Below, piece after piece: positions 8,586 through 42,724 of a DNA stretch of 45,421 nt. The DNA lies in assembly GCA_027307195.1 (NCBI GenBank), contig DAHUXL010000172.1, positions 1-45,421 of the forward strand, in the 5' to 3' direction. The stretch's first letter is position 1. Each line of letters opens with the position of its first letter. Position numbers and translations under genes: made by a program. This stretch comes from Rhodanobacter sp. (GTDB lineage Bacteria > Pseudomonadota > Gammaproteobacteria > Xanthomonadales > Rhodanobacteraceae). The notes under the pieces are model-generated. The model saw nothing but the letters and a program-made list of their open reading frames with translations, did no database searches and was not told where the DNA came from.

Positions 8586-9518
8586 CTAGACCTTGGTCAC
8601 GGACGCCGTCTCGCTGGTCTGGCGACGGAACGCCGCGGGGCTGGTGCCATGCACGCGCTTGAACGCCTGCCCGAAGGCCGCGCGCGAGGTGTAGCCGCAG
8701 GCCTCGCCGATCAACTCGATCGAACGCGGCGTCTCGCGCAGCAGGCGCGCGGCCAGATCCATGCGCAAGGCGGTGACCACGTCCATCGGGGTGACGGGCG
8801 ACAGCTCGGCGAAGTGCCGCGCAAAGCTGGCGCGCGACATGCGGCTGACCCCGGCCAGCCGTTCCAGCGTCCACGGCTCGGCCGGTGCGGCGATCACCGC
8901 GGCCAGCGCGGGCGCCACGCGGGCATCCATCAGCAAGGCGAGCAGGCCTTGTTGCAGATCGCCCTCGTCCATCAACGTGCGCACGACCAGGGTGAACAGG
9001 GCGGCGGACAGGTGCGCGATCACCGCGTCGCCGCCGGGCGAGGCCTGCAGGCTCTCGTGGCGAAGGGTGTGCATCAGCGCGTGCAGGCCGGTGTAGTCGT
9101 CGCGGCCGTGCGTGTGCAGGTGCACCACCTCGGGCAGCGCCTGCAGCAGCAGCGCGTGGTGCTGGCCCAGCTCGAACGTGCCGCAGAGCACGTCGAAATC
9201 GCTGCGCGGCGCCTCGCTCGCCACCTCGACGAGGCGGCCCAATGGACGGCGCACCTCGGCAAACGTCAGCGTGGCACCGTCGGCGTGCCGCATGGTGTGC
9301 GCGGCGCCACGCGGAAACAGCACCAGGTCGCCCGCCACGAACGGGTGCCGCACGCGGCCCACTTCCAGCACGGCCGCACCGGCCAGCACCACGTGGTACG
9401 GCACCTGGCCCGGCGGCGCTTGCGGTTGCGGCACCGACCACGCGCCAGCGAAGCGGCACAGCAGGTCCACTCGCCCGCGCAGGCCCATCGAGGCCATCAG
9501 CGCACTCAAGCTGTCCAA
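8586..9518 (-). CDS. AraC-family regulator with cupin sensor domain
   Basis: A 310-residue regulator with an N-terminal AraC_binding/cupin_6-type domain (residues ~10-190: [23 protein letters not shown]) and a C-terminal double helix-turn-helix (~205-305: [19 protein letters not shown] and [20 protein letters not shown]). The start is TTG at 9516-9518: GGAGG lies 6-10 bases in front of it, and the reading frame before it is closed soon after; the first ATG would be 24 bases further in. It is divergent from the carboxymuconolactone-decarboxylase-like gene, 133 bp away, the arrangement typical of an AraC regulator and its target. Confidence 0.88.
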
Positions 9519-38814: not shown

Positions 38815-39492
38815 ATGACCGCTACCGAACTCGACAATCCCTTCTGGTCGTCACTGCGCAGCCGACATCGGGCACTGGCGCGTAGCCATGGCGATGCGGC
38901 GCGTTACCCGGCGGAGTTCGCGCCATTCCTGGGCGTGGCGAGTGCGCAGACGGATGTGGCTGAGGCGATCGCGTCGCTGCTCGATCCAGGTGAATCCGTC
39001 TACCTGCTTGGCGTGGCGCCCAGGCCGTCGGATGGCTGGAATATCGAGGCTTATGACCCGCTGGCGCAGATGATCTGCAACGCGTCGATTCCGGTGCTCG
39101 ACGGGCCGGAAGTGATCGAGTTGTCCGAGGCACATCGCGCCGATGTGCTGGCGCTGACTGCGCTGGTGTATCCGCATTATTTCCGTCCGCGCACGATGGA
39201 GCTGGGTCGCTACTTCGGGATCTATCAGGGCGGCCGACTGGCAGCGATCATCGGCGAGCGTCTTGGCATGGATGCGTACCAGGAAATCAGCGCCGTCTGC
39301 ACGCACCCGGACTTCAACGGCCGCGGCTATGCGCGCCGTCTGCTGGCGTTGCTGTCGAACGACAATCTCGAACGCGGCCGCACGCCGTTCCTGCATGTGA
39401 GCCACCAGAACCAGCGCGCGAAGCTGCTGTACGAACAGGCCGGCTATCGCCTCCGCCGCGACATCGGATTCTGGTCGCTGAGCCGGACCTAG
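38815..39492 (+). CDS. GNAT-family N-acetyltransferase (FR47-like)
   Basis: A 225-residue protein with a C-terminal GNAT domain: HRADVLALTALVYPHYF, YFGIYQGGRLAAIIGERLG, the acetyl-CoA-binding segment VCTHPDFNGRGYARRLLALL (residues ~161-180), and HVSHQNQRAKLLYEQAGY. It belongs to the FR47-like group. The N-terminal ~100 residues are less typical. It transfers an acetyl group from acetyl-CoA to an unknown amine. The ATG at 38815 has only a weak GCGAG in front. Confidence 0.87.
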   Translation: MTATELDNPFWSSLRSRHRALARSHGDAARYPAEFAPFLGVASAQTDVAEAIASLLDPGESVYLLGVAPRPSDGWNIEAYDPLAQMICNASIPVLDGPEVIELSEAHRADVLALTALVYPHYFRPRTMELGRYFGIYQGGRLAAIIGERLGMDAYQEISAVCTHPDFNGRGYARRLLALLSNDNLERGRTPFLHVSHQNQRAKLLYEQAGYRLRRDIGFWSLSRT

Positions 39493-39570
39493 AATTGCCC
39501 GCGTGCAAACAATGGGCGCCATTTCGCCGCCCGGGTCGTGCAGCCGGTTCTGCGATTCGTTCCGGTCGGC

Positions 39571-39610
39571 TTGACATGTAACGAACGTTACATGTAACGT
39601 TCGTTACATG
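39571..39610 (+). promoter_or_regulatory. Autoregulatory promoter-operator of the TetR gene
   Basis: Bases 39575-39610 form a 36-bp perfect palindrome made of two overlapping 20-bp sites, CATGTAACG-AA-CGTTACATG (39575-39594) and CATGTAACG-TT-CGTTACATG (39591-39610). The last three bases are the tetR start codon. TTGACA, a perfect -35 box, is at 39571-39576; TAACGT at 39595-39600 is a possible -10 at 18-bp spacing, which would put the transcription start at or next to the ATG, without room for a ribosome binding site. Confidence 0.75.
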
Positions 39611-40213
39611 CAGACACGAAAAGAAATCCTGACTGACGAGCTCGTCGGCTACCTGCTCGAACATGGCCTGTCGGATCTCTCGCTGAGGCCGCTGGCCGAT
39701 GCGCTGGGCACCAGTGCGCGCCTGCTCATTTATCACTTCGAATCCAAGGAAGGCTTGCTGACCGAAGTGCTGGACAGCCTGCAGACGCGTCTGCGGCAGT
39801 CCTTCGGCAACCTGGTCGAACGGCGAGAAGGGCGGTCGACGGAGCGGCCGTTGAAACTGTTCTGGGACTGGGCGATCGCGGACGAAAACTATCCGTACTT
39901 CAAGCTGCTCTACGAGCTGCAGATCCTCGCCGTGCAAAACCCTGCCGTTTACGGGCCATACCTGCAGCGCAATGCCTCGAACTGGTCGGAGCTGATCGGG
40001 ACGGCGCTGCCGGAAGCGGAGCGGACTCCGGCCATGGTTACCTTGCTGGGGGCAGTGTTCGATGGACTGTTTCTGGAGTTGATGAGCACCGGCGACAGGA
40101 GGCGGACCACCCAGGCTATCCAGCAGTTCATCCGGCTGGTTGACGAGGCGCGCGGGAAGCGCCCAGTCGCCCAGAAGAAAACCACGAAAGCATCGAATAC
40201 GAGGGGAGGCTGA
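39608..40213 (+). CDS. TetR-family repressor
   Basis: A 201-residue TetR-type regulator. The helix-turn-helix is at ~10-50: LVGYLLEHGLSDLSLRPLAD, ALGTSARLLIYHFESKEGLL. The remainder is the helical ligand-binding and dimerisation domain, with a Lys-rich end (QKKTTKASNTRGG). The start codon lies inside the 36-bp operator and there is no ribosome binding site, so a leaderless message is likely. No other start is plausible because the domain begins within ten codons. It should repress itself and the CPBP gene that follows after 4 bp. Confidence 0.9.
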   Translation: MQTRKEILTDELVGYLLEHGLSDLSLRPLADALGTSARLLIYHFESKEGLLTEVLDSLQTRLRQSFGNLVERREGRSTERPLKLFWDWAIADENYPYFKLLYELQILAVQNPAVYGPYLQRNASNWSELIGTALPEAERTPAMVTLLGAVFDGLFLELMSTGDRRRTTQAIQQFIRLVDEARGKRPVAQKKTTKASNTRGG

Positions 40214-40217
40214 GTTC

Positions 40218-40886
40218 ATGTCGACGACTGCTGCACAAATGATGGGTGGGCGCCGGAAGCCGTGGCTGCTCGGTATGGCCGGACTGCTGCTGGCACTCGG
40301 CGGTATCAGTCTGCCGTTTGGGACGTGGGATCACGCGTTTGCCAGCGTCGGTCGCATGGCTGCCAACGAGCTGGTCTACTGGGGCCTGGTCGCGGCGGTC
40401 CTGCTGTATGTCGTACTGATCGAGCGCCGTCCGTTGGCGTCCATCGGATTGCGCAAACCGGATGGCAGAGACATCCTTGCAGCGCTGGCCACGGGCGTGT
40501 TGATAGTCGCCGTGCTGGCGGTGATGTACCTCGTCGTGTTTCCGGCGCTGCACTGGGACGAGACGCAACAGCTGCAGACGTTGACGGCGGTGCCGTTTTG
40601 GCTGAGATTCATGTCGGTCGTGCGCGCGGCTGTATCCGAAGAGGTCTTGTTTCGCGGGTACGCGCTTGAACGGGTGCAGGAACTGACCGGCAGTCGCAGT
40701 GTGGCAGGCGTGTTCACCTGGGCGGTTTTCACGCTTGAACATCTCAGCTACTGGGGTTGGCATCACTTGCTGATCGCAGGCATGGCCGGCGCACTGCTCA
40801 CGCTGCTTTACCTATGGCGCCGCAACCTGTGGGCCAACATGCTGGCCCACTTCATGGTCGATGCCGTCGGCTTTCTGCTGGGATAA
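40218..40886 (+). CDS. CPBP-family intramembrane protease
   Basis: A 222-residue polytopic protein of the CPBP/Abi (CAAX protease-like) family. The active-site motifs are S-E-E-V-L-F-R at 140-146 (Glu141, Glu142, Arg146), FTLEHLSYW with His175, and HFMVDAVGF with His211 and Asp215. Bacterial members cleave or bind within membranes and are often involved in bacteriocin self-immunity or stress. GGGAGG lies in front of the ATG at 40218, 4 bp after the TetR stop, so the two form an operon. Confidence 0.9.
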   Translation: MSTTAAQMMGGRRKPWLLGMAGLLLALGGISLPFGTWDHAFASVGRMAANELVYWGLVAAVLLYVVLIERRPLASIGLRKPDGRDILAALATGVLIVAVLAVMYLVVFPALHWDETQQLQTLTAVPFWLRFMSVVRAAVSEEVLFRGYALERVQELTGSRSVAGVFTWAVFTLEHLSYWGWHHLLIAGMAGALLTLLYLWRRNLWANMLAHFMVDAVGFLLG

Positions 40887-41026: not shown

Positions 41027-41731
41027 ATGCCCGACCTCTCCAGCTTCCCGATCGCGACGCGCTGGCCGGCGCAGCATCCGGATCGCATCCAGCTGTATTC
41101 GCTCAACACGCCGAACGGGGTGAAGGTGTCGATCATGCTGGAGGAGACGGGGCTGCCGTACGAACCGCATCTCGTCGACATCATGAAGGACGAGAGCCAC
41201 ACGCCGGAGTTCCTGTCGCTCAATCCGAACGGCAAGATTCCCGCGATCATCGATCCGGCTGGCCCCGGCGGTCAGCCACTCGGCCTGTTCGAGTCGGGTG
41301 CGATCCTGATGTACCTGGCAGACAAGACCGGCAAGTTCATTCCGGCCGATCCAGCGCTGCGCTGGGAAACCATCCAGTGGGTGTTCTTCCAGATGGCCTC
41401 GATCGGCCCGATGTTCGGCCAGGTGGGTTTCTTCAACAAGTTCGCCGGCAAGGCGTACGAGGACAAGCGCCCGCTGGAACGCTATGTCGCCGAATCGAAG
41501 CGGCTGCTCGGCGTGCTCGATACCCGGCTGGCTGGCCGCGACTGGATCATTGGCGACGACTACTCCATCGCCGACATCGCCACGCTCGGCTGGGTCAACA
41601 ACCTCATCACGTTTTACGAAGCGCGCGACATCGTGGCGTACGACAGTTTCAGCAACGTTGTCGCATGGCTCGAGCGTGGGCTGGCTCGCCCGGCAGTGCA
41701 GCGCGGGTTGAAGATCCCGAGCAGGGACTGA
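41027..41731 (+). CDS. YfcG/GstB-like glutathione transferase
   Basis: A 234-residue GST of the YfcG-like (nu-class/disulfide-bond oxidoreductase) type, marked by YSLNTPNGVKVSIMLEETGL (residues ~24-43), NPNGKIPAIIDP with the cis-proline, and LFESGAILMYLADK. CAGGAGCAAGCC precedes the ATG; an upstream frame has no family similarity. YfcG-like proteins reduce disulfides with glutathione rather than conjugate. It is not closely related to the two GSTs at 18927 and 24901. Confidence 0.92.
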   Translation: MPDLSSFPIATRWPAQHPDRIQLYSLNTPNGVKVSIMLEETGLPYEPHLVDIMKDESHTPEFLSLNPNGKIPAIIDPAGPGGQPLGLFESGAILMYLADKTGKFIPADPALRWETIQWVFFQMASIGPMFGQVGFFNKFAGKAYEDKRPLERYVAESKRLLGVLDTRLAGRDWIIGDDYSIADIATLGWVNNLITFYEARDIVAYDSFSNVVAWLERGLARPAVQRGLKIPSRD

Positions 41732-41848
41732 CGCCGTCGTTTGACGTGGTTGCCCCGGGATTGCCTCATCGCCAGCCACAAAAAGTCCGCACTGGTGGCT
41801 AGGGTGAGCGCACGTTGCGCCATCTTCCGTTTGCCTAGAGGTGATCCC

Positions 41849-42724
41849 ATGAACCGTCGAAACCTGCTCAAAGGCGCCCTGATCGGCGCCTCGACACTAG
41901 CTCTTCGTCCCTCGTTTTCGCTGGCTGCCGGCAGCCAGGATGCTGCGCAGGCAAGGCTGGCCGAACTGGAACGCCGCCAAGGAGGGCGGTTGGGTGTGGC
42001 CATTCTCGATACCGGCAACGGGCGCCGCATCATGCATCGCGCCGACGAGCGATTCCTGATGTGCAGCACGTTCAAGCTGCTGGCCGTGGCCACGGTGCTG
42101 GTGCGCGTCGATCGCGGCGCGGAGCGGCTGGATCGGCGCATCGTGTTCGGCAAGGAAGCTGTGCTGGCCTACGCGCCGGTGACCAGTCATCGCGTGGGCG
42201 AGCCCGGCATGACGGTGGCTGAACTGTGCGAGGCGGCAATTACCGTGAGCGACAACACGGCTGCGAATCTGCTGCTGGCCAGCATGGGCGGACCTGCCGC
42301 AGTTACGGCTTGCGCGCGAAGTCTGGGTGATCCCGTGACCCGGCTCGATCGGATCGAGCCCGAACTCAACATCGCCAGTCCGGGTGATGAGCGTGACACC
42401 ACCACGCCGGCTGCGATGCTGGCAGACTTGCACGCGCTACTGCTGGGCGATGCACTTTCCCATGTATCGCGTGGACAATTGCTCGAGTGGCTGCGCGCCA
42501 CCAGCACCGGCACCGAACAGCTGCGAGCCGGCCTGCCAGCAGGCTGGCAGGCCGGCGACAAGACCGGCAGCGGCGCGCAGCGCGAAACCAACGACATTGC
42601 CATTATCTGGCCGCCGCAACGCAAACCGCTGCTGGTGGCGGCCTACTACGCCGGGTCGACCGCGGCCACCGACGAACGCCATGCCGTATTGGCCGCTGTA
42701 GGTCGCATCGCTGCATCGATCTAG
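41849..42724 (+). CDS. Class A beta-lactamase, L2-like
   Basis: A 291-residue serine beta-lactamase. The catalytic motifs are all present: Ser73-T-F-Lys76 (in MCSTFK), S134-D-N136, Glu170 in EPELN, and the K238-T-G triad (DKTGSG). Cys72 before the serine is as in L2 and CTX-M enzymes; no second cysteine is in the position needed for the carbapenemase-type disulfide. The N terminus MNRRNLLKGA is a twin-arginine signal, so export is probably through Tat. GAGGTG precedes the ATG. No AmpR-type regulator adjoins. It hydrolyses beta-lactams in the periplasm; the spectrum cannot be read from sequence. Confidence 0.94.
   Translation: MNRRNLLKGALIGASTLALRPSFSLAAGSQDAAQARLAELERRQGGRLGVAILDTGNGRRIMHRADERFLMCSTFKLLAVATVLVRVDRGAERLDRRIVFGKEAVLAYAPVTSHRVGEPGMTVAELCEAAITVSDNTAANLLLASMGGPAAVTACARSLGDPVTRLDRIEPELNIASPGDERDTTTPAAMLADLHALLLGDALSHVSRGQLLEWLRATSTGTEQLRAGLPAGWQAGDKTGSGAQRETNDIAIIWPPQRKPLLVAAYYAGSTAATDERHAVLAAVGRIAASI

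What the first reader, a model, noticed from the sequence alone, without database searches (positions are those of the whole stretch)
39571..39610. 36-bp perfect palindrome overlapping a TetR start codon, apparent leaderless gene
Two 20-bp operators overlap by four bases and create a perfect 36-bp palindrome whose last triplet is the tetR ATG. TTGACA lies directly before it and a -10-like TAACGT would set the transcription start at the ATG. The repressor would therefore block promoter, start site and start codon together, and the message would lack a ribosome binding site.
Basis: partly seen in the sequence, partly recalled or inferred. Interest (0 to 1): 0.6.

Follow-up and report, generated by a model that had tools for sequence, protein, structure and literature searches.

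The report
Self-repressing gene switch without a leader
A bacterial repressor gene starts exactly where its own control site ends, so one 40-base stretch seems to hold the promoter, two repressor binding sites and the start codon; relatives keep this layout, and the same principle is already proven for another repressor, AcuR.

Summary
In detail: 39575-39610 is a perfect 36-bp palindrome, twice as long as the next in the window, ending in the ATG of a TetR-family gene (39608-40213). The orthologue occurs in 27 of 233 genomes of the family (Rhodanobacteraceae); in 26 of 27 a TTG of a -35-like hexamer and the ATG lie 36 or 37 nt apart, and in 25 of these both overlapping GTAAC-N4-GTTAC operators fill the gap. 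Five Burkholderiales, a Novosphingobium and one MAG share it (33 elements). An in-frame TGA inside the -35 excludes a longer N terminus in 22 of 33. No tetR start has a Shine-Dalgarno site; the next gene, a CPBP membrane protease, usually does. New points: the perfect dyad is rare (5 of 33), operators and spacing are the conserved unit; the last T of the -10 is kept (30 of 33, against 1 of 33 in the sister operator); the site is nearly private to this operon; an HTH change accompanies a half-site change. Best reading: a leaderless, autorepressed tetR-CPBP operon, probably bound by two dimers, a new variant of the AcuR kind. No transcript or binding data were available.

The parts
39571..39576 (+). 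-35 hexamer TTGACA; its TGA (39572-39574) is an in-frame stop 36 nt before the ATG
   Evidence: TTG at 36 or 37 nt before the ATG in 32 of 33 elements; TGA at -36 in 22 of 33
39575..39594 (.). operator 1 (core 39577-39592 TGTAACGAACGTTACA), in the -35/-10 spacer
   Evidence: inverted repeat; outer and inner half-sites conserved in relatives
39591..39610 (.). operator 2 (core 39593-39608 TGTAACGTTCGTTACA), over the -10, predicted start site and ATG; centre 16 bp from operator 1
   Evidence: inverted repeat; conserved except in L100, where it has decayed
39595..39600 (+). -10-like TAACGT, 18 bp after TTGACA
   Evidence: TAACGT in 25 of 33 elements; last base T in 30 of 33 against 1 of 33 at the same place of operator 1; weak consensus match
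39608..39610 (+). tetR start codon and predicted transcription start (leaderless)
   Evidence: ATG in 33 of 33 elements, mirror triplet CAT in 16 of 33; transcription start is inferred
39608..40213 (+). TetR-family repressor, 201 aa
   Evidence: Pfam TetR_N 33.5 bits, cut-off 24; AlphaFold2 mean pLDDT 85.6, all-helical, first helix at residues 4-19
40205..40209 (+). Shine-Dalgarno site GGAGG of the CPBP gene, inside the end of tetR
   Evidence: anti-SD energy -11.2
40218..40886 (+). CPBP (Rce1-like) membrane protease, presumed second gene of the operon
   Evidence: Pfam Rce1-like 59.9 bits, cut-off 22.4; CPBP homologue beside tetR in 25 of 27 family loci

Best explanation
39571-39610 is the complete control region of an autorepressed tetR-CPBP operon. 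A sigma70-type promoter (-35 TTGACA, -10 TAACGT) starts the message at, or within about two bases of, the tetR ATG, so the repressor is translated from a leaderless mRNA. TetR dimers bind GTAAC-N4-GTTAC. Two such sites, centres 16 bp apart and sharing CATG, place one dimer in the -35/-10 spacer and one over the -10, start site and start codon, so that repressor and RNA polymerase exclude each other; an unknown ligand releases the repressor. As tetR has no ribosome binding site and the CPBP gene has one, the message should yield little repressor and more protease. Shown here: sequence, conservation, fixed spacing, lack of SD, near absence of other sites. Inferred: transcription start, binding by this TetR, two dimers, ligand, co-transcription and low repressor translation.
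For: Element at fixed spacing before the orthologue in 26 of 27 family genomes that have it, and in 7 further loci. TTG-to-TAnnnT spacer 18 bp in 23 and 17 bp in 9 of 33; T at -8 in 30 of 33 against 1 of 33 in operator 1. TGA at -36 in 22 of 33. No anti-SD pairing before tetR in 34 of 34 loci, CPBP start at or below -4.5 in 26 of 30. In 27 genomes 42 exact core sites: 40 at this tetR, 1 at a scaffold duplicate, 1 elsewhere. SSRLL instead of SARLL in the HTH in L042 and L045, the only two of 33 with GAAGC half-sites. G179 has a second promoter TTGACT-operator-TAGCAT with the same spacing. CPBP next to tetR in 25 of 27 family loci. AcuR precedent with mapped 5' end (PMC3017554).
Against: No RNA or binding data. 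-10 matches the consensus in 3 of 6 and the promoter scan found none. Three of 33 lack T at -8. One of 27 family orthologues (L101) has no element, and L100 has lost operator 2. In 9 of 33 a TTG at -36 is open as a start. Most -10 letters are also operator letters. Relatedness was not removed from the counts. The reversed control pattern gave 10 sites in the 27 genomes, so the single extra site in G179 is within chance by number. ATG positions in 6 of 33 were moved by 3 to 9 nt from the alignment-derived place.
Confidence: 0.77

Rival explanations
1. The message starts upstream and carries the palindrome as an RNA hairpin that hides the start codon or acts on stability or termination.
For: The window's 36-mer folds with -21.1 kcal/mol as RNA.
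Against: The whole dyad is perfect in 5 of 33 and the folding energy falls to -7.2 in relatives. No terminator-like site; Rfam hits are far below gathering scores. The -35-like TTG is fixed while information from -60 to -41 is at most 0.4 bits per position in the 26 family elements.
Confidence: 0.05
2. Autorepressed operator pair as described, but the transcript has a short leader or translation starts elsewhere (for example at the TTG at -36), so it is not leaderless.
For: Weak -10; TTG at -36 open in 9 of 33, one with an anti-SD energy of -7.1.
Against: TGA at -36 in 22 of 33, including the window; no SD before the ATG in 34 of 34 loci; no promoter-like site further upstream in 39300-39570.
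Confidence: 0.12
3. The palindrome is the target of another regulator, not of the adjacent TetR.
For: No binding data; position next to a gene is circumstantial.
Against: The site accompanies this orthologue and almost nothing else in 27 genomes; HTH change with half-site change in 2 of 2.
Confidence: 0.04
4. Each element binds one dimer only (either operator, or the central GTTAC-AT-GTAAC), and the second repeat serves the promoter.
For: L100 keeps operator 1 only, and the second promoter of G179 has one operator.
Against: Both operators keep their half-sites in the other 32 of 33 elements, with constant 16-bp spacing.
Confidence: 0.2

Closest known systems
acuR-acuI-dddL operon of Rhodobacter sphaeroides (AcuR, TetR family; PMC3017554: abstract, passages and one section seen)
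   Same: TetR-family regulator first in its operon; 10 of 10 sequenced clones begin at the AUG; no SD; inverted-repeat operator over the promoter; autorepression; next gene has an SD; similar layouts proposed in other bacteria
   Different: Other TetR subfamily; operator TAATAGAC-n6-GTCTATTA, one inverted repeat; -10 TATTAT; partner is an oxidoreductase and a lyase; ligand acrylate known. Here two overlapping operators run into the ATG, the partner is CPBP and there are no experiments
Tn1721 tetR (Baumeister 1991: title seen in a reference list; paper not held) and lambda cI (named in PMC3017554)
   Same: Leaderless messages of repressor genes
   Different: Other operators and arrangements (recalled); not homologous control regions
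TetR-family regulators that bind as two dimers: QacR, CgmR, SlmA, Ms6564, CprB (PMC4150764, passages seen)
   Same: Long operator of 22-32 bp with room for two dimers; CprB is a likely autoregulator
   Different: Here each unit is a clear inverted repeat and centres are 16 bp apart; two-dimer binding is not shown

Membership tests
TetR family of transcription regulators | N-terminal TetR_N helix-turn-helix domain | tested here: met
   33.5 bits, cut-off 24
TetR family of transcription regulators | All-helical fold with ligand-binding C-terminal domain | tested here: met
   nine helices, mean pLDDT 85.6; nearest solved structures are TetR-family proteins, EbrR first, query TM 0.60. Ligand binding not tested
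AcuR (NF051457) | Match to the curated AcuR protein model | tested here: not met
   not among the window protein's matches; 1 of 15 relatives matches weakly, E 8.5e-4
BetI (TIGR03384) | Score above curated cut-off | tested here: not met
   27.2 bits against 201.3, HTH region only
Leaderless autorepressed TetR operon (as acuR) | No SD before the regulator's start codon | tested here: met
   0 of 34 loci show anti-SD pairing in -18 to -5
Leaderless autorepressed TetR operon (as acuR) | 5' end of the mRNA at the AUG | not testable with these tools
   predicted from -35/-10 spacing only
Leaderless autorepressed TetR operon (as acuR) | Inverted-repeat operator over the promoter | tested here: met
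   repression itself not tested
Leaderless autorepressed TetR operon (as acuR) | Downstream gene on the same transcript, with its own SD | tested here: inconclusive
   CPBP start 4 nt after the tetR stop with SD -11.2; 26 of 30 relatives at or below -4.5, best start chosen; co-transcription not tested
Two-dimer operators (QacR, CprB kind) | Two dimers on one operator stretch | tested here: inconclusive
   two operators in 32 of 33 elements; mirrored cores in 5 of 20 distinct combinations against 1.0 in shuffles, p 0.001; by letters p 0.048

The most novel reading that the evidence does not exclude
A conserved start-codon operator: one two-fold symmetric site for two repressor dimers that is at once promoter spacer, -10, transcription start and initiation codon, kept in alpha-, beta- and gammaproteobacterial lineages, so that promoter occlusion and leaderless translation of the repressor are locked together and set the repressor-to-protease ratio.
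Probability: 0.45. Interest if true: 0.5.

Novelty: new variant of a known kind. Interest (0 to 1): 0.4.

Why it matters
It is a compact natural case of leaderless autoregulation in Gram-negative bacteria, with comparative support for each part, and it extends the AcuR principle to a different TetR subfamily paired with a membrane protease. The 33 aligned elements give a pattern for recognising leaderless repressor genes from sequence, and a 40-bp switch whose promoter, operators and start codon can be tested by single-base changes.

Tried and rejected
RNA hairpin or terminator: no terminator-like site; Rfam best hits 18-21 bits against gathering 56; dyad not conserved.

Longer N terminus: stopped by TGA at -36 in 22 of 33. 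Of the other 11, nine have TTG at -36 (anti-SD 0 to -2.4 in eight, -7.1 in L100), one TGC and one GCG. L091 is open for 471 nt upstream. So the extension is excluded for the window and most relatives, not for all.

Wider regulon: one further exact site, in G179. Looser sites or half-sites were not searched genome-wide. The second double site of G016 is a duplicate that ends in a run of N.

More orthologues: the class sample gave 1 of 369 genomes (the window's own) and the phylum sample 3 of 398, two of them weak and without the element.

Ligand from structure: 3 PDB matches at E 0.001 or less, query TM 0.58-0.62, too weak to name a ligand. Plasmids: 6 records, at most 33.7% identity.

Papers: the eight searches cover an open-access library only. 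For a TetR-CPBP module I saw listings and abstract starts, with 15 of 689, 2 of 2 and 12 of 22 papers listed; none was about such a module by title. That is not proof of absence in print.

Rows dropped: L101 (orthologue without the element), L047 (37% identity, no element), L048-L052 (26-37%) and L102-L103 (32%, no element) are not among the 33. L030-L037, L039 and L040 are the same loci as genomes in the family search and were counted once. The Geothrix label of L038 may be a binning error, as it is 63% identical to the window's protein.

Full report
What was claimed and what is there. All of this is in the sequence at the stated coordinates. It is the longest perfect palindrome of the window (next 18 bp) and not a chance product (2.7e-6 expected).

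Setting. The window lies in a Rhodanobacter-like genome: four Rhodanobacter contigs hold orthologues of 83-89% identity. The gene encodes a TetR-family protein of 201 aa. Four bases after its stop a CPBP (Rce1-like) membrane protease gene begins, with a strong SD inside the end of tetR. A GNAT gene lies upstream on the same strand.

Orthologue comparison. A profile of 15 relatives found the orthologue in 27 of 233 genomes of the family. In 26 of 27 the TTG, operator 1 and the ATG have the same arrangement; in 25 of these operator 2 is recognisable, in L100 it has decayed; L101 has no element. Seven more come from named contigs: a MAG labelled Geothrix, five Burkholderiales and one Novosphingobium. 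That makes 33 elements, 27 of them distinct. The start codon is ATG in 33 of 33; in 6 of these (all outside the family) the place was moved 3 to 9 nt from the alignment-derived one to reach it. Its mirror image at the other end is CAT in 16 of 33, so the ATG is kept as a start codon, and the full dyad, perfect in 5 of 33, is partly incidental. What is conserved is TTG, GTAAC-N4-GTTAC-AT-GTAAC-N4-GTTAC, ATG. From -60 to -41 no position carries more than 0.4 bits in the 26 family elements.

Promoter. TTG stands 36 or 37 nt before the ATG in 32 of 33; the spacer to TAnnnT is 18 bp in 23 and 17 bp in 9, a range that sigma70 tolerates (established knowledge). Most -10 letters are also operator letters and prove little. 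One letter separates the two roles: the second base of N4 is T in operator 2, where it ends the -10, in 30 of 33, but T in operator 1 in 1 of 33 (distinct elements: 24 against 1 of 27; relatedness not removed). The weak point is the low consensus match: the scan found no promoter. In genome G179 a second promoter 7.3 kb from tetR repeats TTGACT, one operator and TAGCAT with the same spacing; one extra site is within chance by number (control pattern 10 sites in 27 genomes), so only its register speaks for it.

Leaderless start. If this is the promoter, transcription begins about 7 nt after the -10, at the A of ATG. Supporting: no anti-SD pairing in 34 of 34 loci (one of them, L101, has no ATG there), while the CPBP start reaches -4.5 or better in 26 of 30; for CPBP the best of several starts was taken, in some loci an internal one, so this figure is biased upwards. 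The -35 supplies an in-frame TGA in 22 of 33; in 9 of the other 11 a TTG at -36 stays open. The first helix begins at residue 4. No RNA data exist here, so this remains an inference.

Who binds. In the 27 genomes with the orthologue 42 exact core sites were found: 40 at this tetR, one at an assembly duplicate in G016, one in G179; the reversed control pattern gave 10. Half-sites GAAGC in place of GTAAC (three of four) occur in L042 and L045, and these are the only two of 33 with SSRLL in place of SARLL in the HTH. By my own alignment from recall that residue corresponds to Gln38 of classical TetR, which contacts DNA bases. Both facts point to the adjacent TetR; two cases from one order are not many.

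One or two dimers. Operator centres are 16 bp apart. Known two-dimer operators of the family span 22-32 bp (PMC4150764 passages). The variable cores mirror each other in 5 of 20 distinct combinations against 1.0 in shuffles (p 0.001); counted by letters p is 0.048. This is suggestive only.

The operon partner. A CPBP homologue lies beside tetR in 25 of 27 family loci; L096 has a DUF2141 gene instead and no CPBP in 6.7 kb, and L101 has none in the stretch held. In the five Burkholderiales it is present in four by tblastn (E about 1e-6 to 1e-7) and in the fifth, L042, by Pfam (74.4 bits). In the Novosphingobium the next ORF matches no Pfam family. The link suggests a membrane-related role, which is a guess.

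Comparison with the known. AcuR of R. sphaeroides shows the same working principle with experimental proof: regulator first in its operon, RNA starting at the AUG, no SD, operator over the promoter, and translation at about 7.5% of the next gene (PMC3017554). The present case differs in protein subfamily, operator, its doubling up to the start codon and the CPBP partner. It is a new variant of a known kind; what the protease does and what the repressor senses remain unknown.

Noticed in passing
window 41741-42724 (+): Chromosomal class A beta-lactamase gene (NCBIfam bla_class_A 328.8 bits, cut-off 200) a short way downstream of the tetR-CPBP pair.
   Followed up: no
window 41027-41728 (+): Glutathione S-transferase-like gene related to disulfide-bond oxidoreductases (below the curated cut-offs); it stays near the pair in close relatives.
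   Followed up: no
L128 8743-8806 (genome G179): Second TTGACT-operator-TAGCAT promoter before an ORF that starts at 8806, with a leader of some tens of bases; a possible extra target of the repressor.
   Followed up: partly
L046 (Novosphingobium), just before tetR: A perfect 36-bp palindrome of different letters at the same place, followed by an ORF without a Pfam match and not by CPBP.
   Followed up: partly
L048, L049 (Inquilinus, Mycobacterium-labelled), before other TetR genes: Unrelated TACCGAC-type inverted repeats with TATAGT about 7 nt before an ATG, seen by eye; leaderless starts may be common among TetR genes.
   Followed up: no
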